From Geobacter sp. (GTDB lineage Bacteria; Desulfobacterota; Desulfuromonadia; Geobacterales; Pseudopelobacteraceae), in NCBI GenBank assembly GCA_025360785.1, contig JANYBN010000104.1, positions 1 to 33,076 of the forward strand: a stretch of DNA of 33,076 nucleotides, in the 5' to 3' direction. Positions within the stretch are counted from its first letter, which is position 1, and every line of letters starts with the position of its first letter. The notes under the pieces are model-generated. The model saw only the letters and a list, made by a program, of their open reading frames with translations, had not been told where the DNA came from and made no database searches. Position numbers and translations under genes: made by a program. Below, piece after piece: positions 11,183 to 27,713 of this stretch.

Positions 11183-11515
11183 CTAAGTTGTTTCGATGCG
11201 GGCAGCCTTCTCTATAATGCCTGACGTACCAAATCTTCGTCGCAACTCATTGTATACCGCATCTGGCGGAATGTTCTGATGCCCGAGTAGAACAAGGAGA
11301 TGAAAGATAAGATCGGCTGATTCATAGACAATTTCATCATGGATGCCACCTTTGCCGGCAATGACTACTTCTGTAGCTTCCTCGCCTATTTTTTTGAGGA
11401 TCTTGTCAATTCCACCGCGCATAAGGGAAGATGTATAGGAACTGTCAGTTGGATTGCTCTTGCGGTCTAGTATGACCTGATAGACAGCCTGGAGAATGTC
11501 GCTTTCGTTTGTCAT
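11183..11515 (-). CDS. hisE: Phosphoribosyl-ATP pyrophosphatase (histidine biosynthesis)
   Basis: HisE hydrolyses phosphoribosyl-ATP to phosphoribosyl-AMP, the second step of histidine synthesis. The 110-residue all-helical protein shows the MazG-like metal-binding pattern: [13 protein letters not shown], then [18 protein letters not shown]. It is free-standing rather than fused to HisI; hisI is not in the window. The ATG overlaps the hisF stop as ATGA, so translation is coupled. It is the last his gene before the rpsU promoter. Confidence 0.95.
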
Positions 11516-12273
11516 AATCGAACCTCTACACCTTTATCCCGGAGATATTCCTTTGCCTGTCCTATAGTGTATTCCCGATAGTGAAAAATCGAAGCAGCCA
11601 GACAGGCACTGGCCCCTGCTGTCGTAAAACCGTCATAGAGATGCTCCAGATTGCCAACGCCGCCGGAAGCGATAACCGGTATTGAAACTGCGTCCACTAC
11701 GGCACGAGTCAGTTCCAGATCATAGCCGTCCTTGGTGCCGTCGCAATCCATGCTTGTCAAGAGAATCTCGCCTGATCCGTACGCTTCCATCCTGACAGCC
11801 CACTCGACGACATCAAGCCCGGTTGGTTTGCGGCCACCATGTGTATACACCTCCCACCGTATTTCGCCAGGTACCCGACGAGCGTCGATTGCCACTACAG
11901 TGCACTGCGAGCCGAAACGTTCGGCGGCTTCACGGACAAAGTCGGGCCGGTCAACCGCAGCAGTGTTAATGGAGGTTTTATCCGCGCCGGCATTGAGCAG
12001 GCGGCGGATATCATCAACACAGCGGATTCCGCCACCGACGGTTAACGGCATGAATACCCGCTCAGCGGTACGTCGTACGACATCAACTATGGTATCCCGC
12101 TGATCGGAGGAAGCAGTAATGTCCAAAAAGGTCAGTTCATCTGCCCCCTCCAGATCGTAGCGCTCAGCAATCTCGACCGGATCTCCGGCATCACGCAATT
12201 CCAGAAACTGAACCCCCTTGACGACGCGGCCACCTTTTACATCCAGACAGGGAATAATACGTTTAGTAAGCAT
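11512..12273 (-). CDS. hisF: Imidazole glycerol phosphate synthase, cyclase subunit
   Basis: HisF uses ammonia from HisH to convert PRFAR into imidazole glycerol phosphate and AICAR, linking histidine and purine synthesis. The 253-residue (beta/alpha)8 barrel has the catalytic aspartates in [14 protein letters not shown] (about residue 11) and [13 protein letters not shown] (about 130), and phosphate-binding loops VGGGIR and ASGGVG. It starts two bases after the hisA stop and its partner hisH lies upstream in the same run. Confidence 0.97.
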
Positions 12274-12275
12274 TT

Positions 12276-13007
12276 CTAGCTTCGTCCCTTTGTGAGCGCT
12301 ATCGCTTCGCTCAACTTGATTGCACCTGTATAGACGGCTTTACCGGTGATGACGCCGGATATTCCACAGGACTCAATTGCCATCAGATTTTCAATGTCCT
12401 TCAGGCTTGAGACGCCACCGGAAGCTATCACAGGGATCGAAACAGCCTCAGCCAGTGCTTTGGTCGCCTCCAGATTTGGCCCTTGCAGCATACCGTCCCG
12501 GGCAATGTCGGTGTAGATAAGTGCTGTGACACCAAAATCCTCAAATTTACGGGCCAGTTCAACGGCTGTGATGTCGGTCAGTTCGGCCCACCCCTGAACC
12601 GCCACCATTCCGTTTTTGGCATCAATGCCGACCACGATCCGCCCTGGGAATTTTGCACAAGCTTCGCGGACCAGTTCAGGGTTCCGCTGCGCTGCAGTGC
12701 CGATGATGACGCGGGAAAGTCCCAGCGACAGATACGCCTCAATTGTGGCTATATCACGGATACCGCCTCCCAGTTGTGCCGGAATAGTGATGGACTTCAG
12801 AATTGCCTCAATGGCTCCCCGGTTCTTCGGCTGGCCGGCAAAGGCACCGTCAAGGTCGACGATATGCAGCAGTTCGGCGCCCTCGTCCTGCCAGGCAAGA
12901 GCCTGTGCCCCGGGGTTGTCGTTGAATACTGTATCTTTATCCATCAGCCCCTGTTCCAGGCGGACGCATTTTCCTTCTTTCAAATCTATGGCAGGAATTA
13001 CGATCAT
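12276..13007 (-). CDS. hisA: ProFAR isomerase HisA
   Basis: HisA isomerises ProFAR to PRFAR by an Amadori rearrangement. The 243-residue barrel is a paralogue of HisF and has its signature [15 protein letters not shown] with catalytic Asp8, the half-barrel repeats LGGGIRD and ASGGVSSL, and [14 protein letters not shown] with the second catalytic Asp near residue 129. The start overlaps the hisH stop as ATGA. Confidence 0.97.
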
Positions 13008-13627
13008 TTTAGCTCCGCAAAATTCTTCAGGATCTGCAGGCCGATTGCCTGCGATTTTTCCGGGTGAAACTGGGTGGCGACAACATTGTCCTTCCAGACT
13101 GATGAGCAGAATTCGATGCCGTAGTCGGTAGTTGTTGCGATCACACTGCTGTCATCCGGCTTGGCGTAATAGGAGTGGACAAAATAGACGTTGCTGCCGT
13201 CAGCGACCCCCTCAAAAATCGGCGGGCGCCGTTTGAACGAAAGTTGGTTCCAGCCCATCTGCGGAACTTTCAACTTTTCGCCCGCCACCGTCATCTGGTC
13301 CGGAAAGCGAAGCACATGACCGGGGATGACATTCAAGCCGCTATACAGACCAAACTCCACACTGTCACTGAACAGCAGCTGCATTCCGACGCAGATTCCC
13401 AGAAACGGCCTTCCCTCGGCAATGACCTTCAGGATCGGCTCGACAAACCCTCCCTGTTCCAGGTTGTGCATGCAGTCGCGAAACGCGCCGACACCAGGCA
13501 ATACGACCCGTTCGGCCTGAAGTACAACCTGCGGGTCGTCGGTAATAATCGCCTCGCTGCCGATCTTCTCAAACCCTTTTTGCACGGAGCGGAGGTTGCC
13601 CATGCCGTAGTCGATAATAGCTATCAT
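13004..13627 (-). CDS. hisH: Imidazole glycerol phosphate synthase, glutaminase subunit
   Basis: HisH is the class I glutamine amidotransferase that supplies ammonia to HisF. The 207-residue protein has [12 protein letters not shown] at the start, the nucleophile loop [10 protein letters not shown] (Cys about 79) and the His-Glu of the triad in [10 protein letters not shown] near the end. Its start overlaps the stop of the upstream chemoreceptor gene as ATGA, an unusual partner for a histidine gene. hisB, hisC, hisD and hisG are not in the window. Confidence 0.97.
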
Positions 13628-15180
13628 TTTATACCGCTCTTGTTAAGGTGCGGACCATAGCGCCTGTCGGCTCCCTTGATATGATTGATCAGCCAATCCT
13701 GCAGGAAATTAATTACATCCTGGGCTATGAGAGGTTCGCCAGCATTGAACTTCCCGATCAGATCGGTGACCTGATCAAGCAGCTTCTTGTGCAGGGCCTT
13801 GTGCTGGGTCTCTTCAGGATAATGAGTCTGAGCGAAGTTGCGCTCTTCATCGGCAAAGTGATTGATTGTGTACTCCGCCAAACCGTTCAGCACACGACCA
13901 ACAGCCTCTTTGCTCTTTTTTTGCTGCATGGCATCGGCCAGATCATTGACCATATTGAAGAGAACTTTGTGCTGCTCATCGAATTTCGAAACGCCGGTCG
14001 CAAACGATGCGTCCCACTCCAGTGCCTTTGACAGGCGGAAATGACCGACCAATTCATGCAGGCTGTCAACCTCTCTGGCCAGGGTGGTGGTGGCCTGTGT
14101 TGTGCTGCGGGAGTTTTCTACATTGCGATTCACAACATCGGTGATCATCTGGATATTGTTGGTGATCTCCTGCGTCGTAGCCGTCTGTTCTTCGGCGGCG
14201 GTTGCCACCTGGCTGATCTGCATGGTCAGGTCATTGATCTTGTTGAGAATGTCCTCCAGAGCTTCACCGGAACGGGTCGTTTCAGCCGTACCCCGTTTGA
14301 CTTCATCAACACCTTCGGACATGGAGCTGACAGCACTCTGTGTTTCATTCTGAATTGTTTTGATCATGGCGGCGATCTCTTTTGTCGCCTTGGTCGTGCG
14401 CTCTGCAAGAGCTCGAACCTCGTCGGCAACTACCGCGAACCCACGCCCCTGTTCGCCGGCCCTTGCAGCTTCGATAGCTGCGTTCAGCGCCAGAAGATTG
14501 GTTTGATCAGCAATGTCCTGAATCGTGTTGACGATCGCACCGATTTGATCCGAGCGTTGTCCCAGACCTTCAACCGTTTGGGATGATACATTTACGCGCT
14601 GCGCGATATTCTCCATCAGACGGGAGCTGCTCTGAACCAGTTGAGAACCGCTGTGAGTCTGGTCTGTCGCTTTCTGGGCGCTTTCAGCGGCATAGAGACA
14701 GTTGCGGGCAATGTCGCCGGAGGTGGCCGACATCTCTTCACTGGCTGTGGCGATAGTGCTGGCCTGAATGGCGACATCTTCGGCAGCTGAAGCCATGGCA
14801 TCGGTTGTGGACCGGACCAGCACCACGGAGTCGCGCACCGTATCAGCAACTGCAAAGAACTGGCGCATGGCTTTGTTCATATCGGTCATCATGGTGTTGA
14901 AGGCGGTGGCCAAGCGTGCAAATTCACCGCCGCCGGTTACGTCGGCCCGGATGGACAGATCGCCGGCAGCAGCCTTTTCGAGTGCCGTCACAATGCCGGC
15001 CAACGGCCTGAAGGCGCTGCTGCTGAGCAAACCGAGAATGACAGATGTTGCAATCAGCAGTACTGTGCCGATAGCAATTGAAATAAGAAGATCTCCCTTG
15101 GGATTGAGGAGTGCCATGGATGCGACGGTCAAAACTATTCCCAGGGCATTCCCGAAGATGATACGAACGGTAAACGACAT
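13624..15180 (-). CDS. Methyl-accepting chemotaxis protein with C-terminal bacteriohemerythrin domain
   Basis: This 518-residue receptor has two hydrophobic segments (about 7-25 and 31-53) with almost nothing between, so there is no periplasmic sensor domain. A HAMP region follows ([20 protein letters not shown]), then a long coiled-coil signalling domain with the hairpin tip [20 protein letters not shown] and [16 protein letters not shown]. The C-terminal 130 residues are a hemerythrin domain with the diiron ligands in FDEQHK, HFADEE, HKALHKK and HIKGAD. Hemerythrin-tipped receptors such as Desulfovibrio DcrH sense oxygen or redox state, so a cytoplasmic oxygen/redox sensor is inferred. It lies 24 bases after glyS and overlaps hisH by four bases. 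Housekeeping-operon placement of a chemoreceptor is odd. Confidence 0.93.
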
Positions 15181-15204
15181 TTGTAGCTCCTGTAAGGTCG
15201 GTGG

Positions 15205-17268
15205 TTAAGCAAGCCTTGAAAAATCGGCAATTTTGCCGAACATGCGGGCGATGGTAGTCAGCAAAGCCAGGCGGTTTGTTCTCACCCGTTGATCTTCAGC
15301 CATGACCATTACTTTATCGAAGAAGCTGTCTACCGGTCCGCGCAATGTTGCGATCTCGGTCAGGGCATCCAGCCATGCACCGGACGATATTAATCCCTCT
15401 GCCGCACTCTTTACTCTCTGTGTCGCTTCGTACAATCCGCCTTCCGCATCATCCTGGAAGAGCGCTGGGTCAACCGGAGCGTCGATACCATCTTTGATGA
15501 TGTTGCCGACGCGTTTGAATGCCACTGTTAACGGTTCAAAGTCCGGGTGCGTCTTAAATTCTGCCAGTGCAACAATACGGGCCTTTACGTCGACCAGGTC
15601 AACGAAACCGGCAGCGATAGCGGCATCAACAGCATCAGGCGCATAAGAACTTCCCAGCAGATTGACAAACCGGGCCCGGAAAAATTCCAGCACATCGCCT
15701 GCAACCTGCTCTTTCGGGCGGGTTAATTTAGCGGACAGAAGCGTCAATGACTCGTCTATCAGCGAACTCAACGACAGGCGGTATCCCTCTTCAAGAATGA
15801 TGGCAATAATGCCGATGGTTGCGCGCCGCAGGGCGTACGGGTCTGCGGCGCCGGTAGGGATCAGCCCGACTCCGAAGCAGCCGCAGATCGTATCCAGTTT
15901 GTCGGCTATGGAGACAAAAGCACCACAATCTGATGCGGGAAGCTCTCCACCTGCCTGAGTAGGCAGGTAATGTTCGGCAATGGCATTGGCAACTTCAGTA
16001 CTTTCACCTTCCAGCAGGGCATACTCACGCCCCATGATCCCTTGTACCTCGGGGAATTCGCCCACCATACCCGAAACCAGGTCGGCTTTGCAGAGCCATG
16101 CAGCGCGTGAGGCCTGGCTCTTGATGGCTGGATTTATCTGGTCGGCCAATCCTTCAGCCAGCGACCTGAAGCGCTCCATCTTCTCAAAGGAGGTACCCAG
16201 CTTCTGCTGGTAGACGACCTTTTTGAGCGATTCCACCCGTTCGTCCAGGCGTACTTTTTTATCCTCTTCAAAGAAAAAGCGGGCATCGGATAAACGGGCA
16301 CGCAGAACACGCTCGTTCCCTTTGACGACAACCGAGGGATCTTCGGTCAGAGTGTTGTTGATGGTAATAAAGCCGGGCAGCAATCCTCCGTCGGCGTCAA
16401 CAATGGAAAAATAGCGCTGATGGCTACGCATCGAGGTAATCAGAACCTCTTTGGGAACCTTCAGGAATTCGGAGGAGAAGGTGCCATGAACGGCACTTGG
16501 ATATTCAACCAGATACGTTACCTGTTCCAGCAGCTCTTCATCGGGCAGCAGATGACCACCGGCAGCGACAGCGACCCGGTGTGTTTCACGCCTAATGATC
16601 TCTTTGCGCTTTTCCGGATCCGGGATGACAAAATGCCGCTCACATTCATCCAGATAATGGACAAAATTGTTTACCGGGAAGGGGGTGTTGGCCATAAAAC
16701 GGTGCCCGCGTGAGACTTTGCCGCTCTCAACCGTACCGAAAGAGAACGGTACAATTGTGCCGTCGAACAGCGCCACGATCCAGTGAATCGGCCGGGCGAA
16801 CCGCACCTCCTGGTCTCCCCAGCGCATTGACTTTTTGAAGGGGATGTTTGCGACCAACGCCGGAAGCAACTCAGTCAGCAGCTCATAGGTAGGCCGGCCG
16901 GTTACCTGTTTGCTGACGAACAGATATTCGCCCTTATCAGTAGTAATTGTCTGCAGGGCAGCAACATCAACTCCCTGGCCACGGGCAAAGCCTTCGGCGG
17001 CCTTGGTCGGCTTGCCTTCAGCATCGTAGGCAGCTTTAATTGACGGCCCGGTAGCCGTGAGCTCAGCGTCCGGCTGAATTGCCGGGATACCCTTTACTAC
17101 CAGCACCAGTCGTCGTGGTGTTGCCAGCGTTTTTATCTCGGTAAACGAGAGGCGGGCAAGAGCAAGTTCTTTGGTTATGATTGCTTCCATATCCGCAGTG
17201 GCGCGCGGTATGAATCCGGCCGGAATCTCTTCGCAACCGATTTCAAGAAAAAGTTCTTTGGTGTTCAT
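15205..17268 (-). CDS. glyS: Glycyl-tRNA synthetase, beta subunit
   Basis: The beta subunit binds tRNA-Gly and is needed for aminoacylation in the alpha2beta2 enzyme. The 687-residue length is normal. Recognisable blocks include LFLEIGCEEIPAGFIPRA at the start, FKKSMRWGD and ARPIHWIVALFDG, GFITINNT, an HD-like part (about 430-600) with GGELPASDCGAFVSIADKLD, and an anticodon-binding C-terminus with DSFFDKVMVMAED. Its ATG shares one base with the glyQ stop (TGATG), so the subunits are translationally coupled. Confidence 0.97.
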   Translation of the reverse strand: MNTKELFLEIGCEEIPAGFIPRATADMEAIITKELALARLSFTEIKTLATPRRLVLVVKGIPAIQPDAELTATGPSIKAAYDAEGKPTKAAEGFARGQGVDVAALQTITTDKGEYLFVSKQVTGRPTYELLTELLPALVANIPFKKSMRWGDQEVRFARPIHWIVALFDGTIVPFSFGTVESGKVSRGHRFMANTPFPVNNFVHYLDECERHFVIPDPEKRKEIIRRETHRVAVAAGGHLLPDEELLEQVTYLVEYPSAVHGTFSSEFLKVPKEVLITSMRSHQRYFSIVDADGGLLPGFITINNTLTEDPSVVVKGNERVLRARLSDARFFFEEDKKVRLDERVESLKKVVYQQKLGTSFEKMERFRSLAEGLADQINPAIKSQASRAAWLCKADLVSGMVGEFPEVQGIMGREYALLEGESTEVANAIAEHYLPTQAGGELPASDCGAFVSIADKLDTICGCFGVGLIPTGAADPYALRRATIGIIAIILEEGYRLSLSSLIDESLTLLSAKLTRPKEQVAGDVLEFFRARFVNLLGSSYAPDAVDAAIAAGFVDLVDVKARIVALAEFKTHPDFEPLTVAFKRVGNIIKDGIDAPVDPALFQDDAEGGLYEATQRVKSAAEGLISSGAWLDALTEIATLRGPVDSFFDKVMVMAEDQRVRTNRLALLTTIARMFGKIADFSRLA

Positions 17269-18146
17269 CAGGCAATACCTCCTTTCAGCAGTGGGAAGCC
17301 CAGACGTTCACGCATCCGCAGATATCCCTCTGCACAGACACGGGCTACGCCGCGAACGCGACCGATGTAGGAAGCGCGTTCGGTGACTGAAATCGCCCCG
17401 CGGGCATCAAGAAGGTTGAAAGTGTGGGAACACTTCATGACGTAATCGTATGCCGGCAGCACCAGCTCCTTCTCAACCAGGCGCAGGCACTCTTTTTCGT
17501 ACATGGTGAAGAGCTGCAGCAGCATGTCAACATCCGCCTCTTCGAAGTTGTGTCGCGAGAACTCGACTTCGCTTTCATGATGGATGTCGCCGTATTTTAT
17601 CCCCTTGACCCACTCCAGGTCATAGACGTTGTCTACCCCCTGCAGGTACATGGCGATGCGTTCGCAGCCATAGGTGATTTCCGATGGAATCGGTTTCAGG
17701 TCGATCCCGCCGGCCTGCTGGAAGTAGGTAAACTGGGTGATTTCCATCCCGTCCAGCCAGACTTCCCACCCCAGTCCCCAGGCGCCCAGAGTCGGCGATT
17801 CCCAGTCGTCTTCGACAAAGCGGATATCATGCTTGGCAGGATCAAGCCCGAAAGAGCGGAGCGAATCCAGGTACAGGTCAAGAATATTGAGTGGCGATGG
17901 CTTCATGATGACCTGAAACTGATAGTAATGCTGCAGCCGGTTGGGGTTTTCACCGTAACGCCCGTCGGTGGGGCGTCGTGACGGTTCCACGTAGGCTACG
18001 TTCCATGGTTCCGGGCCTAGTACGCGCAGAAATGTGGCCGGATTGAATGTGCCGGCACCCTTTTCCGTGTCATATGGCTGCTGGATGATGCAGCCCTGTT
18101 TGGCCCAATAGCCCTGTAGGGAAAGGATAAGATCTTGAAATGTCAC
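17268..18146 (-). CDS. glyQ: Glycyl-tRNA synthetase, alpha subunit
   Basis: The alpha subunit carries the class II catalytic core that activates glycine. The open frame runs much further upstream, but the real start is the GTG at 18146: it gives the family-typical [18 protein letters not shown] opening, has GGAGG seven bases before it, and yields 292 residues, the usual size. Motifs include [39 protein letters not shown] and the conserved [15 protein letters not shown]. The upstream extension overlaps a promoter and the HAD gene and is not coding. Confidence 0.97.
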
Positions 18147-18197
18147 GCATGTACCTCCGGATGGGGAGTCTGATTGTTTGGTGCCAAAGAAATGTAA

Positions 18198-18226
18198 GTA
18201 ATAACAGGAATAGCGGCTTCGGTCAA
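18198..18226 (-). promoter_or_regulatory. Sigma-70 promoter for the glyQ-glyS-chemoreceptor-his unit
   Basis: On the - strand, -35 TTGACC (18226-18221) and -10 TATTAC (18203-18198) are 17 bases apart. The predicted start lies about 45 bases before the glyQ GTG, in the 149-base gap after the HAD gene. No T-box or glycine riboswitch structure is apparent in this short leader. Confidence 0.65.
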
Positions 18227-18295
18227 GGTTGCGAAGATGACGAACTGCAAATTCGGAAGCAGTAATGAGATAAAACGATCTGTCTGCGTATGAGA

Positions 18296-18970
18296 TTAGA
18301 TGAGCGACGACAGTGAGTCCGTGACAAATGTAGCCTGGTCGAGTCTGTCGGCGGGATAGCTGTTGGTTACGGCACACACCATTAATCCTGCCGCCTTGGC
18401 AGCGGATATCCCGGCAGGAGTATCTTCTATAGCAATAGTTGCGTTTTTTGAGATGGAATTGTGAGCAGACTGCAGCCGCTGGAAAGCAAGTTGGTAACAT
18501 TCAGGATCAGGCTTGCTTACTGCGACATCGTCGGCAGTTACAATAACGTCAAAATAGTCTGAGATGCCGAGCATTGCCAGGATTGGATCAATATCAGACC
18601 TGAGAGCGCCGCTGCATATTGCCAACGGAATTTTTTGCGCATGCAGAAAAAAAATCAGCTCCAATACACCTGGATATGCAGAGACGTCCGACCGGATGAT
18701 TTCCTGAAAGAAGGATGCTTTTTGTTCAATAAGAGAGTGTAATTTGTCCGGAATGAGCATCGTCCCTTTCGAGGAAAAGGCGTGTCTGAATGCGTCCCTG
18801 TCATCGAAGCCTATATAGGTCTCAACGTATTCCTGCCAGGTGAAATGAAGACCTAGCGGCTCCAATGTCCGCTGGAAAGCCGCATAGTGAAGCGGCTCCG
18901 TATCTACAATAACCCCGTCAAAGTCGAAAATGACGGTCTCTGTCTGTATTCCATTTGGAAAAATAACCAT
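18296..18970 (-). CDS. HAD-superfamily hydrolase (beta-phosphoglucomutase / phosphatase-like)
   Basis: The 224-residue protein has the HAD motifs in order: nucleophile loop [17 protein letters not shown] (catalytic Asp about 16), a helical cap (residues about 25-95), motif II serine in ICSGAL, motif III lysine in SKPDPECY, and motif IV acidic residues in [16 protein letters not shown]. This arrangement fits the subfamily that includes beta-phosphoglucomutase and small sugar-phosphate phosphatases. The substrate cannot be told from sequence. It stands alone, separated from glyQ by 149 bases that hold the glyQ promoter, and divergent from gap. Confidence 0.9.
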
Positions 18971-19049
18971 GGATTAAGTTGCCTATTCCTTCATTTTGAA
19001 ATTCAATTCAGGTTGCTAAAATAGCATTTCTTATGTTCGTAAAACAATG

Positions 19050-19076
19050 AAAAAGCCCCCGAAAGGATGGCTCTTT
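19050..19076 (-). terminator. Weak hairpin in the HAD-gap divergent region
   Basis: AAAAAGCC (19050-19057) and GGCTCTTT (19069-19076) can pair with one mismatch, and the - strand reads into TTTTT. It looks like a terminator, but no gene on the - strand precedes it. It may be a relic or may reduce antisense transcription from the gap promoter region. Nothing else recognisable is seen in 18971-19140. Confidence 0.3.
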
Positions 19077-19142
19077 ATATGCTTTTCCAAAAATTAAGTT
19101 GTATGTACATAATTCTTTTTTTTAAATCATACTGAAATATGG

Positions 19143-19198
19143 TTGACGATTTGTTATTATGCTCTATTATTTGGAAAAGATTTTACCGTATACACGGT
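19143..19198 (+). promoter_or_regulatory. gap promoter with a downstream palindrome
   Basis: TTGACG (19143-19148) and TATTAT (19165-19170) are 16 bases apart, about 65 bases before gap. The inverted repeat ACCGT-ATAC-ACGGT (19185-19198) falls just after the predicted start, where a repressor would block elongation. The promoter is convincing. The operator is a guess based on symmetry only. Confidence 0.6.
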
Positions 19199-19225
19199 GA
19201 GAGTGCAGGACATCTTTCAATCTAG

Positions 19226-20239
<1,014 letters not shown>

Positions 20240-20257
20240 CAAATAATTTTTAGAAGG

Positions 20258-20286
20258 AGAGGGGGATTATTCCCCCTCTTTTTTTT
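20258..20286 (+). terminator. Strong intrinsic terminator between gap and pgk
   Basis: A perfect 9-bp stem, AGAGGGGGA (20258-20266) with TCCCCCTCT (20271-20279), has a four-base loop and is followed by seven T bases (20280-20286). It lies 19 bases after the gap stop. pgk starts 41 bases later, so either some readthrough or a promoter hidden in this short gap must drive pgk. Confidence 0.9.
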
Positions 20287-20326
20287 GCCACTTACTTGAG
20301 ATTAAATATTTGACAGGAGGTAAACT

Positions 20327-21523
20327 GTGTCGATTCGTTATATCGATGAAATTAAGGATCTGAAGGGGAAAAAGGTTTTCATTCGCGTGGATTTTAACGT
20401 GCCCCAGGATGATAAGGGCGTTATTACCGAAGATACCCGTATAGTTGGGGCCGTTCCTACAATAAAATACGCCTTGGAGCAGGGGGCCAAGGTCGTTCTG
20501 GCTTCCCATCTCGGTCGCCCTAAGGGCGAAAAAAAGGCCAAATACAGCATGGCTCCCGCCACAGCCCGTCTCTCTGAATTACTTGGCAAGCCGGTGGTCC
20601 AGGCTCCTGACTGTTTCGGGTCTGAAGTGGATAAGCTAGTAAATGCCATGAAACCTGGTGAGGCGGTCATGCTTGAGAATGTCCGTTTTTATCCCGGTGA
20701 GGAAAAAAATGATGACGACTTTGCTGCAAAGCTTGCCAACAGCTTTGATGTTTACGTCAATGATGCTTTTGCCGTGTCACATCGCGCTCATGCGTCAGTC
20801 GAAGCCATAACCAAGCATATACCTGTTATAGCCGCCGGCTTTCTGATGAGAAATGAAATGACTTTCTTTGACAAGGCCATGCAGAATCCTGTCAGGCCGC
20901 TGGTAGCAATACTTGGCGGCGCCAAGGTGTCCGGGAAGCTTGAAGTCCTTGAAACGCTTATTAACAAGGTTGATAAGGTCGTTATCGGCGGCGGAATGGC
21001 ATTTACTTTCCTGAAGGCCATGGGGTACAACGTAGGTAAATCACTGGTAGAGGACGAACTGATACCGACGGCTCGTACCATTATGGAAACTGCGCGTAAA
21101 AAGGGCGTCATGTTCTATCTGCCGGTGGATTGTGTCGTTGCCAACGCTTTTGAAGCCACTGCAACCAACTTTATCACTACTGCCCAGGAAATCCCGGCAG
21201 GGTGGATGGCACTTGATATTGGACCGGCAACAACCACCCTGTTCGCAGAAACCTTGCGTGACGCAAAAACCGTCATCTGGAACGGTCCGATGGGCGTTTT
21301 TGAAATGGATGCCTTTTGCCGCGGTACATTTGCGATGGCGGAGGCGGTTGCCAACTGTTTTGCCACAACCATCATCGGCGGGGGCGATACCGATTCTGCC
21401 GTACGCAAGGCAGGAGTTGAAAACAGGGTCAGCTATATTTCAACCGGCGGAGGTGCCTTCCTGGAGCTGTTGGAAGGGAAAACTCTGCCCGGAGTCAACG
21501 CGCTCGAAGTTAATAATAAATAA
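20327..21523 (+). CDS. pgk: Phosphoglycerate kinase
   Basis: Pgk transfers phosphate between 1,3-bisphosphoglycerate and ADP. The 398-residue protein starts with GTG, preceded by CAGGAGGT. Motifs: [13 protein letters not shown] (residues about 17-29), [18 protein letters not shown], the nucleotide-binding LGGAKVSGK (about 200) and [13 protein letters not shown] (about 355). tpiA begins 13 bases after the stop, giving a pgk-tpiA pair. Confidence 0.98.
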
Positions 21524-21536
21524 AAAGGGGAATCAG

Positions 21537-22292
21537 ATGCGAATGCCGGTTATTGCTGGAAACTGGAAACTCTTTAAAACTATCGGTGAATCTGTTGCGC
21601 TGGTAAATGAGCTTAAGCCGCTTGTGGCTAACAATAAGGGTGTAGAAGTCGTTGTAGCACCGGTCTTCACGGCATTGAGCCGCGTTTCCGATGCTATTGC
21701 AGGTTCAAATATCAAACTGGCCGCCCAGGACTGTTTCTGGGAAGAAGAGGGCGCTTTTACAGGTGAAGTTGCACCTGGGCTGTTGAAAGACGCCGGCTGC
21801 AGTCACGTGATTATCGGACATTCAGAGCGTCGTCAGTATTTCGGTGAGACAGATCTGACTGTCAACAAGAAAGCCAAAGCTGCCATCGCCGCCGGGCTAA
21901 GTGCTATCGTCTGTGTCGGGGAGTTGCTGGCCGAACGGGAATCGAATCAAACATTTTCAGTCATTGAAACTCAGATTAAAGGCAGCTTGGCGGGGCTTAC
22001 GGCAGATGACTTTGCTAAAATTGTTATCGCATACGAGCCGGTATGGGCAATTGGAACCGGTAAGACCGCCAGTGATGCTCAGGCCCAGGAGGTACACATC
22101 TTTATCCGTCAATTAATTGCCCGACTGTTCAATCAGTCAGTGGCTGATGCCGTACGCATTCTCTATGGCGGCAGCGTAAAGCCGGATAACGTTAAAGGCT
22201 TGATGGCTCAGCCGGATATAGACGGCGCGCTCGTTGGCGGAGCAAGCCTTAAAGCAGAACCCTTTGCAGCAATAGCTGCTTTTAACGTCTGA
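21537..22292 (+). CDS. tpiA: Triosephosphate isomerase
   Basis: TpiA interconverts glyceraldehyde-3-phosphate and dihydroxyacetone phosphate. The start at 21537 gives 251 residues and the normal N-terminus MRMPVIAGNWKLFKT, with AAAAGGGGA just upstream; the frame is accidentally open far into pgk, but that extension is not coding. Catalytic residues: Lys in GNWKLF, His in IIGHSERRQYFGE (about 97) and Glu in AYEPVWAIGTGKTA (about 168), with the phosphate loop YGGSVKPDN. Confidence 0.98.
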   Translation: MRMPVIAGNWKLFKTIGESVALVNELKPLVANNKGVEVVVAPVFTALSRVSDAIAGSNIKLAAQDCFWEEEGAFTGEVAPGLLKDAGCSHVIIGHSERRQYFGETDLTVNKKAKAAIAAGLSAIVCVGELLAERESNQTFSVIETQIKGSLAGLTADDFAKIVIAYEPVWAIGTGKTASDAQAQEVHIFIRQLIARLFNQSVADAVRILYGGSVKPDNVKGLMAQPDIDGALVGGASLKAEPFAAIAAFNV

Positions 22293-22338
22293 GTTCAGCC
22301 CTGTGCACTCCGGAATTATGCTCATCTTCATTTAGAAC

Positions 22339-22368
22339 TTTACAGTATGTAAATCGCTGTGCTATAAA
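22339..22368 (+). promoter_or_regulatory. Candidate promoter for secG
   Basis: TTTACA (22339-22344) and TATAAA (22363-22368) are separated by 18 bases in the 109-base gap after tpiA. A shine-dalgarno AGGGGAT follows before the ATG at 22402. No terminator is seen after tpiA, so secG may also be read from pgk-tpiA. Confidence 0.45.
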
Positions 22369-22401
22369 TTTTCTCTTTAAAACGTTGCTAGGGGATCTGG
22401 T

Positions 22402-22764
22402 ATGACAATTGCTCTTACAATTTTACATGTACTCGTTAGTCTGTTTTTGATTGGTGTCGTACTGCTGCAATCTGGAAAAGGCGCTGAAATGGGAGCCTCT
22501 TTCGGTAGCAGTGGCAGCCAGTCTGTTTTTGGTGCAGGCGGCGGAACGTCTTTCCTGAGTAAATTAACTACCAGCGCCGCTGTTATCTTTATGCTGACTT
22601 CATTGACTTTAGCGTATGTTTCCGGACAGCCCTCGTCTTCATCAATGATGTCCGGCAAAGGGAAGGCCGCTCCTGTTCAGGCACCGGCTGCAGCACCAGT
22701 TCAACAGAAGACGGATTCGGTTCCTGCACCTGTTTCTCCTTCAGTTCCCGTACAGAAAAAATAA
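22402..22764 (+). CDS. secG: Preprotein translocase subunit SecG
   Basis: SecG is the small membrane partner of SecYE in protein export. The 120-residue protein has two hydrophobic helices (LTILHVLVSLFLIGVVLLQS and a second at about residues 53-73) with the conserved loop GKGAEMGASFGSS then GAGGGTSFLSK between them, and a Pro/Ala/Val-rich tail typical of the group. The following tRNA-Leu(GAG) gene reproduces the secG-leuU order of E. coli. Confidence 0.95.
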   Translation: MTIALTILHVLVSLFLIGVVLLQSGKGAEMGASFGSSGSQSVFGAGGGTSFLSKLTTSAAVIFMLTSLTLAYVSGQPSSSSMMSGKGKAAPVQAPAAAPVQQKTDSVPAPVSPSVPVQKK

Positions 22765-22864
22765 TATTTTCACTTGATAAAACCGGACAGCTGTGTTAGA
22801 AACACCGTCTGTCGTATAGTTAAAAAATAATATGTTCGTACACAGTATTTTGTGTACTCTGCTT

Positions 22865-22951
22865 GCGGTGGTGGCGGAACTGGTAGACGCACCAGCTTGA
22901 GGGGCTGGCGGGGGCAACTCCGTGATGGTTCGATTCCATTCCACCGCACCA
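22865..22951 (+). tRNA. tRNA-Leu (anticodon GAG), CCA encoded
   Basis: The acceptor stem GCGGTGG (22865-22871) pairs with CCACCGC (22941-22947), followed by discriminator A and an encoded CCA (22949-22951). The D arm GCG...CGC, the anticodon stem CCAGC/GCTGG with loop TTGAGGG (anticodon GAG, reading CUC/CUU), a long class II variable arm typical of leucine tRNAs, and a T arm with TTCGATT are all visible. It is located 100 bases after secG, with no strong promoter of its own. Confidence 0.97.
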
Positions 22952-25856: not shown

Positions 25857-26579
25857 TCATGGTTCTTGCTTGCATGCCGACAAAGTCTTGTGCAAATTGC
25901 GCACCTGCTGCCAGACCAGCGCTTTCGGCAGAGTCATGGACATCGCCTGCATGCAGCGCTCAAGCCATCCCTGCCGCTCTAGAATCTGGTGAATGGCTTT
26001 ATCCAGATCAACACGGACCGATTGTCCGTAAGCTTTTTCTGCTTTTGCTATTGCCTGGCGCAACAAGGGTAACCTGGGCTGCATCATGGCAATGTCAATC
26101 AGATCCCGGCTAAAAACTCCATCGTCAGCCCAACGGTCGGAGTTCGCCAGGAGTTTGCTTGCCAGCATATCCATAACCGTCAGGGTGGCAATGCCACAGA
26201 TAGCATCTTTTGCAGTTGGTGCAGCCAGCTCGATACGCGCTTCCAATATGATCTCGAATTTGATGGGCTGCCCATCCACCGAGAGAATTGTTCTGATGCC
26301 GTATTGATCAGCCCGAATATCGCGCATCTGCGACAATGACGGTTGCCCGGGCAGCAAGATGGCATTGACACCATTGGCCCCCATCAGTAATTGACGCAAG
26401 CTTCGGTAGTGGCTCACGTCCGACAGTATAAAGTCGATGTCAACTGATTCGCGATATTCACCGAAACGTAGCGCGATTGCTGTTCCGCCACCGAACAGGC
26501 AGCAGTGCTCCTTCAGCAGATTTCCGTTCAGGGCGCCGAGAACCCTGGCGATAAGTTTGTGGAGGGGACGCTCAAACAT
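25857..26579 (-). CDS. AbiEii/AbiGii-type nucleotidyltransferase toxin
   Basis: The roughly 240-residue protein carries the nucleotidyltransferase signature of the AbiEii family: FGGGTAIALRFGEYRESVDI followed by DFIL, with the GG and DxD metal-binding aspartates near residues 30-50, then a helical C-terminal half with LVWQQVRNLHKTL. Members act as toxins of type IV or related toxin-antitoxin systems by modifying RNA or other targets. I choose ATG 26579 because it overlaps the stop of the upstream HTH gene (ATGTTTGA), which indicates coupling; an in-frame codon at 26615 would lie deep in that gene. It converges on qorB with 8 bases between stops. Confidence 0.85.
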   Translation of the reverse strand: MFERPLHKLIARVLGALNGNLLKEHCCLFGGGTAIALRFGEYRESVDIDFILSDVSHYRSLRQLLMGANGVNAILLPGQPSLSQMRDIRADQYGIRTILSVDGQPIKFEIILEARIELAAPTAKDAICGIATLTVMDMLASKLLANSDRWADDGVFSRDLIDIAMMQPRLPLLRQAIAKAEKAYGQSVRVDLDKAIHQILERQGWLERCMQAMSMTLPKALVWQQVRNLHKTLSACKQEP

Positions 26580-27063
26580 GGCTGTTGCCACCGCCAAATG
26601 CCACGCGCAACGCATCGATCAGCTGCTGCTCGTTCACTGTCAGGGCCGGCTCATCCAGATGCCGCCAATTGCGCTCGTAGATGTCCCAGGCCTCTTTTGG
26701 CGACAGGGTCTCTGTTCCTTGAAGTTGCCAGGCAAGTTGCTTGAGCTGCGGATAGTCAATCAGGCGAATCCGTGCCGGTATCCAGCCTTCCCGGTGCTCG
26801 GCAGGATGCGCCTCGATCGGCTCTGTAGCCGTAATCAGTCCGAAGTTCAAGCCCAACGCAGCCATGGTATTCATGTAGGCCCCCATGGTCACCGCCGGTT
26901 CTCCTTTTTCAATGCGGTGCAACGTCACCCGCGACATGCCCGCAGCTTCTGCCGCCGTAGTTGCGCTGATCCGCAGAGCCTTGCGATGGGCACGAATCTG
27001 CTGCCCCAAGGCAATCAGATGCTCTGCTGCAACACTGGCTATGATAGGTGGTTTTGATGGCAT
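26572..27063 (-). CDS. HTH (XRE-type) antitoxin/regulator paired with the AbiEii toxin
   Basis: The 163-residue protein has an XRE helix-turn-helix at about residues 15-70 (LGQQIRAHRKALRISATTAA, then MSRVTLHRIEKGEPAVTMGA) and a C-terminal part with LSPKEAWDIYERNWRHLDE followed by a short tail. HTH proteins of this type commonly precede AbiEii nucleotidyltransferases and serve as antitoxin and autorepressor; that role is inferred. I start at ATG 27063: the upstream in-frame codons overlap the promoter -10 box at 27079-27074. Coupled to the toxin by an 8-base overlap. Confidence 0.8.
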   Translation of the reverse strand: MPSKPPIIASVAAEHLIALGQQIRAHRKALRISATTAAEAAGMSRVTLHRIEKGEPAVTMGAYMNTMAALGLNFGLITATEPIEAHPAEHREGWIPARIRLIDYPQLKQLAWQLQGTETLSPKEAWDIYERNWRHLDEPALTVNEQQLIDALRVAFGGGNSHV

Positions 27064-27073
27064 AGTGTAACTC

Positions 27074-27101
27074 ATTATATACAATTAGATTGTGTTGTCA
27101 A
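27074..27101 (-). promoter_or_regulatory. Near-consensus promoter of the toxin-antitoxin pair with palindromic operator
   Basis: On the - strand, perfect TTGACA (27101-27096) and perfect TATAAT (27079-27074) are 16 bases apart. The spacer contains the inverted repeat ACAAT-TAG-ATTGT (27081-27093), placed to block polymerase if bound. The ATG at 27063 lies about four bases after the predicted start, so the message would have almost no leader. Confidence 0.75.
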
Positions 27102-27116
27102 TAATAAGAAATATAA

Positions 27117-27347
27117 TATGCAGAAAAAAGCAGGCAGCGGCAAGGTGCCTACGATGAGCTGTCCCTTGAGTATGCCCTGTCGCAGATGTTTTCTCCCAAG
27201 CAGAAAGAGCTGTTCCGCAAGAAACTGGACGGCCTGCCGCTGACTAAAACCGAAAAGGAGTACTATTCGCGGGCGGTCAAAAAGAAGGTCGCGGCGCTGG
27301 CCAACGCAGAGCTGCATCGCCAAGCGCGGATGTTGCTGGAGTTGTGA
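27117..27347 (+). pseudogene. Orphan C-terminal fragment of an unrecognised protein
   Basis: The + frame is open from 27117 to the TGA at 27345 and has protein-like composition (YDELSLEYALSQMFSPKQ, LDGLPLTKTEKEYYSRAVKK, LANAELHRQARMLLEL), but no convincing start codon or ribosome-binding site. I do not recognise the family. It reads opposite to the genes on both sides and probably is what remains after a rearrangement brought in the truncated transposase and toxin-antitoxin pair. Confidence 0.5.
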
Positions 27348-27412
27348 AGAGTGGCGCGGAGGATTCATAGGAGGTCGAGTGCGTTTAATATGGGGAGTGT
27401 CCCGCATTTTCT

Positions 27413-27422
27413 CCCGTGTCCC
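27413..27422 (+). repeat. 10-bp repeat flanking the transposase remnant, left copy
   Basis: CCCGTGTCCC here and at 27772-27781. GGGAGTGTCCC, itself partly palindromic, lies 11 bases to its left (27394-27404). GGGACA-type repeats next to a REP-associated transposase look like REP-like target or end sequences. Confidence 0.5.
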
Positions 27423-27425
27423 CCG

Positions 27426-27713
27426 ATGCCCATTGCGGTTGTGTTTCCGGTTGAAATAGGCAGCATAACCGGTGAGCAGGCGCCGCATTGTTTCGGAAAG
27501 GGATACTCCGGTCGGCATGAGCAGCAGGTGAAAGTGGTTCGACATGAGCGCCCAGGCATAACACTTGGTGGCGCTTTTGGTGAGCAGTGCTGACATGCTT
27601 GCCACAAAGCGCAGCTTGTCAGCGTCATCAGCGAAAATATCACGGCGCTCAATCCCGCGAACTATGACGTGATGCAGGACGTGTGGTATGTCAAGACGTG
27701 GTTGGCGTGGCAT
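27426..27713 (-). pseudogene. REP-associated tyrosine transposase (Y1_Tnp/RAYT), truncated
   Basis: From ATG 27713 the frame reads a clear RAYT N-terminal domain: MPRQPRLDIPHVLHHVIVRG, IFADDADKLRFV, AWALMSNHFHLLLMP with the HUH motif (HFH), and LSETMRRLLTGYAAYFNRKH. After NGH (27426) homology stops; the expected block around the LF..RYK region is missing, and the frame runs on through REP-like and unrelated sequence. These proteins cut single-stranded DNA at REP hairpins. The truncated copy probably is inactive. Confidence 0.8.

What the first reader, a model, noticed from the sequence alone, without database searches (positions are those of the whole stretch)
13624..15180. Hemerythrin chemoreceptor inserted between glyS and hisH with translational coupling to hisH
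A receptor lacking a periplasmic sensor but carrying a C-terminal diiron hemerythrin domain shares a 4-base stop/start overlap with hisH and follows glyS by 24 bases. Its synthesis is thus tied to amino-acid and translation genes. Whether oxygen sensing is linked with biosynthetic state or the gene is just a passenger is open.
Basis: partly seen in the sequence, partly recalled or inferred. Interest (0 to 1): 0.55.

Follow-up and report, generated by a model that had tools for sequence, protein, structure and literature searches.

The report
Oxygen-type chemoreceptor inside a histidine operon
A motility receptor with an iron-based, probably oxygen- or redox-sensing tail sits between a protein-synthesis gene and a histidine gene in a family of sediment bacteria; lineages that lost swimming have dropped it, so it looks like a lodger in that operon rather than a link between oxygen and histidine.

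Summary
Window 13624-15180 encodes a 518-aa receptor: two membrane helices with almost no loop, HAMP, MCP signalling domain, C-terminal hemerythrin domain with all seven diiron ligands. It follows glyS by 24 nt and overlaps hisH by ATGA. Of 72 genomes of the window's family, 54 carry it in the glyS-hisH slot, 14 have glyS next to hisH without it, 4 are unresolved. The receptor has a strong ribosome site; hisH does not exceed background, so hisH is probably translated by coupling to the gene before it. The receptor is under purifying selection. Its absence tends to follow motility: all 6 flagellin-less genomes among 30 examined have an empty slot, but so do 8 with flagellin. In the sister family, where glyS and hisH lie apart, the orthologue sits beside cytochrome oxidase genes in 14 of 17 genomes and beside nrfA in 2. 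Best reading: a DcrH-like oxygen/redox chemoreceptor for flagellar taxis, lodged in a housekeeping operon and repeatedly lost from that slot, perhaps also exchanged into it. A functional link to histidine or translation is not supported. It is a known kind of protein; none of the papers found describes this location.

The parts
13624..15180 (-). chemoreceptor, 518 aa: 2 TM - HAMP - MCPsignal - C-terminal hemerythrin
13627..14025 (-). hemerythrin domain (residues 386-518), seven diiron ligands
   Evidence: AlphaFold2 pLDDT 95.2; Foldseek DcrH-Hr 3waq E 1.1e-6, TM 0.83, and hemerythrin 4xpw/4xpx TM 0.85
13004..13627 (-). hisH, start codon overlaps receptor stop (ATGA 13624-13627)
15181..15204 (-). 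24-nt gap glyS to receptor with a Shine-Dalgarno match (-6.6 kcal/mol)
15205..17268 (-). glyS (glycine--tRNA ligase beta)
15224..15239 (-). terminator-like hairpin (-8.0 kcal/mol) inside the last glyS codons; possibly a by-product of the FGKIADFS codons
17268..18500 (-). glyQ (glycine--tRNA ligase alpha); the family model starts at residue 120, so the real start is probably near 18140
12276..13007 (-). hisA
11512..12273 (-). hisF
11183..11515 (-). hisE (phosphoribosyl-ATP diphosphatase)

Best explanation
The gene encodes a membrane-anchored chemoreceptor that senses inside the cell. The C-terminal hemerythrin domain carries a diiron site that binds O2 or is oxidised by it, and passes this directly to the adjoining methylation helices and so to CheA and the flagellar motor, most likely to move these bacteria away from oxygen. 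The gene is the third of glyQ-glyS-mcp-hisH-hisA-hisF-hisE. It is read from the operon transcript with its own ribosome site, and hisH is translated by coupling to its end. The location is a lodging: receptor function belongs to the motility system and the his genes do not need it. Shown here: domains, ligands, predicted fold, conserved location, purifying selection, repeated absence from the slot, association of absence with missing flagellin and few receptors. Inferred: O2 as ligand, signalling through CheA, direction of taxis, a single transcript, translational coupling.
For: Domains and ligands. Fold like DcrH-Hr. Slot: 54 of 72 family genomes carry it, 14 empty, 4 unresolved. Ribosome-site energy at or below -4 kcal/mol: receptor starts 51 of 51 (median -7.9; two of the 51 are contigs of one genome, G036); hisH after the receptor 10 of 53 (median -3.2); control of 590 internal glyS ATGs 30%. 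Coupling kept in a loss scar: G062 has a 37-codon remnant resembling the receptor's first and last codons that still ends in the ATGA overlap. Purifying selection: dN/dS 0.016-0.207 in 12 of 12 chosen pairs. Motility link: flagellin absent in 6 of 30 genomes searched, all 6 with an empty slot; present in 16 of 16 slot genomes searched (of 54) and in 8 of 14 empty ones. Genomes with 10 or fewer MCP matches: 8 of 8 empty, against 6 of 60 of the rest (Fisher 4e-7; threshold chosen after seeing the counts). Two second copies (G012, G037) lie beside a CheW gene. Sister-family orthologues lie beside COX1 and COX3 in 14 of 17 genomes, as printed for Gbem_0040 of G. bemidjiensis near its caa3 oxidase (PMC2996986, passages read).
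Against: With phylogeny taken into account the receptor-number link is weak: of 9 independent pairs, 4-5 go the same way and 0 the other at a threshold of 10 (median p 0.06); 5-6 and 0-1 at 15 (median p 0.03); 5-7 and 0-2 at 20 (median p 0.07). Eight of 14 empty genomes still have flagellin. COX1 does not follow the receptor in the window's family: 11 of 16 slot and 12 of 14 empty genomes have it. The window's own hisH site (-4.4) is one of the 10 above the threshold. The hairpin at the glyS end could attenuate the transcript. No metal, O2 or taxis data exist for this protein. In Magnetospirillum gryphiswaldense two hemerythrin MCPs were among 11 deleted receptor genes or pairs, most of which gave only small changes in swim halos (PMC12442639, passages read).
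Confidence: 0.7

Rival explanations
1. Functional coupling: placing the receptor in a glycyl-tRNA synthetase/histidine operon ties receptor dose, and hence oxygen avoidance, to translation or amino-acid state.
For: The order is held in 54 of 72 family genomes, with hisH overlapping the receptor's stop codon.
Against: Fourteen genomes keep glyS-hisH without the receptor; absence tends to follow flagellin loss; sister-family orthologues lie elsewhere, mostly beside an oxidase; the receptor has its own ribosome site and so need not follow glyS translation.
Confidence: 0.07
2. The receptor has its own promoter inside glyS or the gap, and the operon is transcribed separately upstream and downstream.
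For: Some relatives have long leaders: 134-177 nt in four Oryzomonas-type genomes (G043, G050, G055, G064) and 284 nt in G046. A terminator-like hairpin ends glyS in the window; over 66 glyS ends such hairpins are slightly stronger than synonymous shuffles (mean -2.5 against -1.9 kcal/mol, not tested further), and 8 of 100 shuffles reach the window's value.
Against: The window gap is 24 nt, and 9 nt in G004 and G014. Promoter-like sites in 12500-19300 are no more than chance (6 against 5.3 expected), with none on the minus strand just upstream. Sigma-54 and sigma-28 patterns: 0 of 52 upstream regions. The hairpin occurs in only 22 of 66 glyS ends and also in 5 of 14 empty slots.
Confidence: 0.2
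3. The hemerythrin domain senses something other than O2, for example nitric oxide, peroxide or general redox state.
For: Two sister-family orthologues sit beside nrfA (cytochrome c552 nitrite reductase). The review PMC9388753 (passages read) notes that fast autoxidation may make bacterial hemerythrin sensors more redox sensors.
Against: Fourteen of 17 sister orthologues lie beside COX1/COX3; DcrH binds O2.
Confidence: 0.2
4. The gene is a decaying passenger.
For: Repeated absence: the glyS+hisH trees need 9-10 changes of slot state; one copy (G040) is frameshifted, which may be an assembly error.
Against: Seven of seven ligands invariant in 71 of 71; dN/dS 0.016-0.207. The location may be neutral, the gene is not.
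Confidence: 0.04

Closest known systems
Gbem_0040 (mcp040) of Geobacter bemidjiensis, MCP with hemerythrin-like domain
   Same: Described as an MCP with hemerythrin, much smaller than DcrH, near the caa3 oxidase (PMC2996986, passages). Relatives of the window protein at 61-64% identity sit beside COX1/COX3 in 14 of 17 sister-family genomes. That one of these (G101, contig of 4,615,150 bases) is G. bemidjiensis itself is my recollection of its genome size, not a look-up; I did not fetch Gbem_0040 by name.
   Different: Lies beside oxidase genes, not between glyS and hisH.
DcrH of Desulfovibrio vulgaris
   Same: HAMP - MCP - C-terminal hemerythrin; hemerythrin domain 32% identical and the same fold.
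   Different: DcrH has a periplasmic domain; the window protein has only a few residues between its two membrane helices.
Long hemerythrin MCPs of Geobacterales (open frames mostly about 680-730 aa)
   Same: 41-52% identical from HAMP to hemerythrin.
   Different: Open frames about 165 or more residues longer; not in the slot. In the window's own genome no other match ran past residue 388 from the MCP part into a hemerythrin domain.
Single-domain bacteriohemerythrin (4xpx)
   Same: 40% identical, ligand positions aligned.
   Different: No receptor domains.

Membership tests
Methyl-accepting chemotaxis protein | MCP signalling domain with conserved tip, HAMP, membrane anchor | tested here: met
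   MCPsignal 164 bits, HAMP 39 bits; tip nearly all invariant in 29 aligned sequences; two N-terminal helices
Methyl-accepting chemotaxis protein | Signals through CheW/CheA | not testable with these tools
   Context only: two second copies (G012, G037) lie beside a CheW gene
Hemerythrin-domain chemoreceptor (DcrH kind) | C-terminal hemerythrin domain with five His, one Glu, one Asp | tested here: met
   71 of 71; NCBIfam bact_hemeryth 148 bits against cut-off 84
Hemerythrin-domain chemoreceptor (DcrH kind) | Four-helix hemerythrin fold | tested here: met
   Predicted model:
Hemerythrin-domain chemoreceptor (DcrH kind) | Diiron centre that binds O2 or changes redox state | not testable with these tools
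   Needs purified protein
DcrH orthologue in the strict sense | Periplasmic domain between the two membrane helices | tested here: not met
   Loop of about 5 residues, so not filed as DcrH itself
Class 40H receptor | About 40 heptads between HAMP and end of the hairpin | tested here: inconclusive
   Model hairpin turns at residues 240-242 with helix to 378; about 280 residues after HAMP would fit 40H, but no heptad alignment was made

The most novel reading that the evidence does not exclude
The glyS-hisH junction is an exchange slot: a chemoreceptor gene enters and leaves a housekeeping operon repeatedly, partly by homologous exchange through its conserved neighbours, while hisH translation is re-coupled each time to whatever gene lies upstream. 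G009 and G016 look mosaic (glyS 88-90% to the empty genomes G044/G056 but 82-83% to the window; hisH 93% to the window but 83-86% to G044/G056), and the receptor of G052 branches among receptors of another genus.
Probability: 0.33. Interest if true: 0.5.

Novelty: new member of a known kind. Interest (0 to 1): 0.36.

Why it matters
It is a good example of operon membership that does not report function: the gene's presence goes with flagella more than with its operon partners. It also makes hemerythrin chemotaxis testable in cultured anaerobes (Oryzomonas japonica and Pelotalea chapellei carry the arrangement), since what the diiron site of DcrH-type receptors senses in the cell and how it signals is still open in the reviews seen (passages). 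The short form, with no periplasmic domain, is a simpler protein for that work.

Tried and rejected
Set aside: a receptor-specific terminator (hairpin at 15224-15239): found in 22 of 66 glyS ends, including 5 of 14 empty slots, and only slightly stronger than synonymous shuffles. Not found: sigma-54 or sigma-28 promoters just upstream (0 of 52; simple patterns typed from recall). Rejected: association of the receptor with COX1 inside the window's family. Rejected: the empty slots whose glyS ends in IAG as one clade (7 of the 8 tested, AU p 8e-59); why scattered genomes share that ending is unexplained. Of four empty-slot leaders compared with a chosen relative's leader, only G066 keeps it (0 of 500 shuffles as good); G023, G033 and G008 do not (192, 349 and 396 of 500). 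Searches for papers: methyl-accepting chemotaxis with hisH and glyS, 0; Geomonas with hemerythrin, 0; hemerythrin with chemotaxis and Geobacter, 7 listed, of which I read passages of one (read). Tran et al. on Geobacter chemotaxis (PMC2577667) was seen in passages only and gave no lead on hemerythrin.

Many genomes are fragmented metagenome assemblies. Trees are quick ones and warn of long branches (G046, G072 and others); one search left out G046 and six of the eight outgroups, and in it two outgroup genomes fall between genus g2 and the rest, so the root is unsure and gain and loss cannot be told apart by the tree alone. The 17 sister genomes are related and show three contexts. The 12 dN/dS pairs and the 30 genomes (14 empty, 16 of 54 slot) were my choice; one dN/dS pair (G000/G037) has saturated dS. 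Coordinates and counts were copied by hand. Raw coordinates gave a 4-base overlap in 45 of 51; reading the codons gave 51 of 53, two of them GTGA.

Full report
What is there. On the minus strand the window reads HAD-family gene, glyQ, glyS, receptor, hisH, hisA, hisF, hisE (names by NCBIfam). The receptor (13624-15180, 518 aa) has two membrane helices separated by about five residues, a HAMP domain, an MCP signalling domain and a C-terminal hemerythrin domain. It follows glyS by 24 nt and its stop codon overlaps the hisH start as ATGA.

The hemerythrin domain is intact. All seven diiron ligands are invariant in 71 of 71 full-length relatives (49 in the slot, 5 second copies, 17 from the sister family; 8 partial or frameshifted rows were left out). 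The domain model has pLDDT 95.2 and matches DcrH-Hr (TM 0.83, 32% identity) and a single-domain hemerythrin (TM 0.85, 39-40%) best. Metal and O2 binding are inferred.

The arrangement is a family trait. Among 117 genomes, the 72 of the window's family split as follows: 54 with the receptor in the slot (48 with both neighbours on one contig; 6 at contig edges: G022, G024, G026, G036, G065, G070), 14 with glyS next to hisH and no receptor, and 4 unresolved (G002, G059, G061, G063). None of the 45 genomes of the other three families has the arrangement. Two cultured strains carry it: Oryzomonas japonica Red96 (L093) and Pelotalea chapellei DSM 13688 (L098). A class-wide search (277 genomes, E <= 1e-110) matched 87, all in the same order. 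In one outgroup locus read in full (L214) hisG, hisD, an aminotransferase (hisC), hisB, hisH and hisA run in one row, and in another (L211) glyS is followed by pyruvate phosphate dikinase; two more outgroup loci (L207, L215) look the same behind glyS by eye. In the window's genome hisB and hisC lie on another contig. So the his operon appears to have been split in this family, with its second half behind glyQS.

How it is expressed. The receptor has a Shine-Dalgarno match at or below -4 kcal/mol in 51 of 51 starts measured; hisH behind it does not exceed background (10 of 53, against 30% of 590 internal ATGs), and the overlap is 4 bases in 51 of 53 junctions. I infer that hisH is translated by coupling. 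The window's own hisH site is marginal (-4.4). In 9 of 14 empty slots hisH starts 1-5 nt after the glyS stop codon, so it can be coupled to glyS instead. One genome, G062, keeps a 37-codon remnant resembling the receptor's two ends, still ending in the overlap with hisH. No internal promoter or receptor-specific terminator was found with simple scans. A single transcript is likely but not shown.

What it is for. The receptor gene is under purifying selection: dN/dS 0.016-0.207 in 12 chosen pairs, in the range of glyS (0.032-0.193) and in several pairs above hisH (0.029-0.087). Its absence tends to go with loss of motility: of 30 genomes searched for flagellin (all 14 empty ones and 16 of the 54 slot genomes), 6 lack it and all 6 are empty-slot genomes; 16 of 16 slot genomes have it, and so do 8 of 14 empty ones. 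All 8 genomes with 10 or fewer MCP matches are empty, against 6 of 60 others. CheW counts differ in the same direction (p 0.02). With relatedness allowed for, the receptor-number link is 4-5 of 9 independent pairs in one direction and none in the other (median p 0.06; 0.03 and 0.07 at two other thresholds). It is suggestive, not firm. In the sister family the orthologue lies beside COX1 and COX3 (with a weak Sco1 match below Pfam's cut-off) in 14 of 17 genomes, beside a cytochrome c552 nitrite reductase in 2 and beside ferrochelatase without the oxidase in 1. The G. bemidjiensis genome paper already described such a receptor near its caa3 oxidase and suggested a response to oxygen (PMC2996986, passages). 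COX1 does not follow the receptor in the window's family (11 of 16 slot, 12 of 14 empty).

History of the slot. The glyS+hisH trees need 9 or 10 changes of slot state. The most distant genus of the family (g2) carries the receptor in 10 of 11 genomes and a remnant in the eleventh, so early presence followed by losses is the simplest reading, though the root is unsure. G066 keeps the receptor's leader without the receptor. Eight empties share a glyS ending IAG and 2-5 nt to hisH although the seven tested do not form one clade, and the receptor tree disagrees with the glyS+hisH tree for G052, G009 and G016. Exchange through the flanking genes would explain this, but it was not tested against a genome-wide tree.

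Verdict. A real, conserved and apparently functional receptor of a known kind (hemerythrin chemoreceptor, short form), in an unexpected and lasting location. The oxygen-to-biosynthesis link is not supported.

Noticed in passing
window 11183-13627 and G000:C39 (L220): The his operon is split in this genome: hisH-A-F-E behind glyQS, hisB and hisC on another contig; an outgroup locus (L214) has hisG-D-C-B-H-A in one run.
   Followed up: partly
L169 (G062): A 37-codon remnant between glyS and hisH that resembles the receptor's two ends and still overlaps hisH.
   Followed up: partly
L039, L041, L057, L064, L148, L155, L165, L178: Eight empty slots share a glyS ending IAG with 2-5 nt to hisH; seven were tested and are not one clade.
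   Followed up: partly
L156, L161, L164 leaders between glyS and receptor: Three Oryzomonas-type genomes have 134-177 nt leaders with short repeats containing CCCATG or CCTATG; no function assigned.
   Followed up: no
window 25857-27713, minus: AbiEii-family nucleotidyltransferase (25857-26615) near an IS200-like Y1 transposase (27075-27713): possible mobile or type IV toxin-antitoxin remnant; partner not sought.
   Followed up: no
window 19235-22951, plus: Glyceraldehyde-3-phosphate dehydrogenase, pgk, triosephosphate isomerase, secG and tRNA-Leu(GAG) in a row; the TIM ORF 21132-22292 has about 138 extra N-terminal residues overlapping pgk, probably a start-codon artefact.
   Followed up: no
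window 17268-18970, minus: The listed glyQ ORF has about 119 residues before the family model begins and overlaps the HAD-family ORF; probably a start-codon artefact.
   Followed up: no
L153 (G040): Receptor gene frameshifted in this genome; assembly error or decay not told apart.
   Followed up: no
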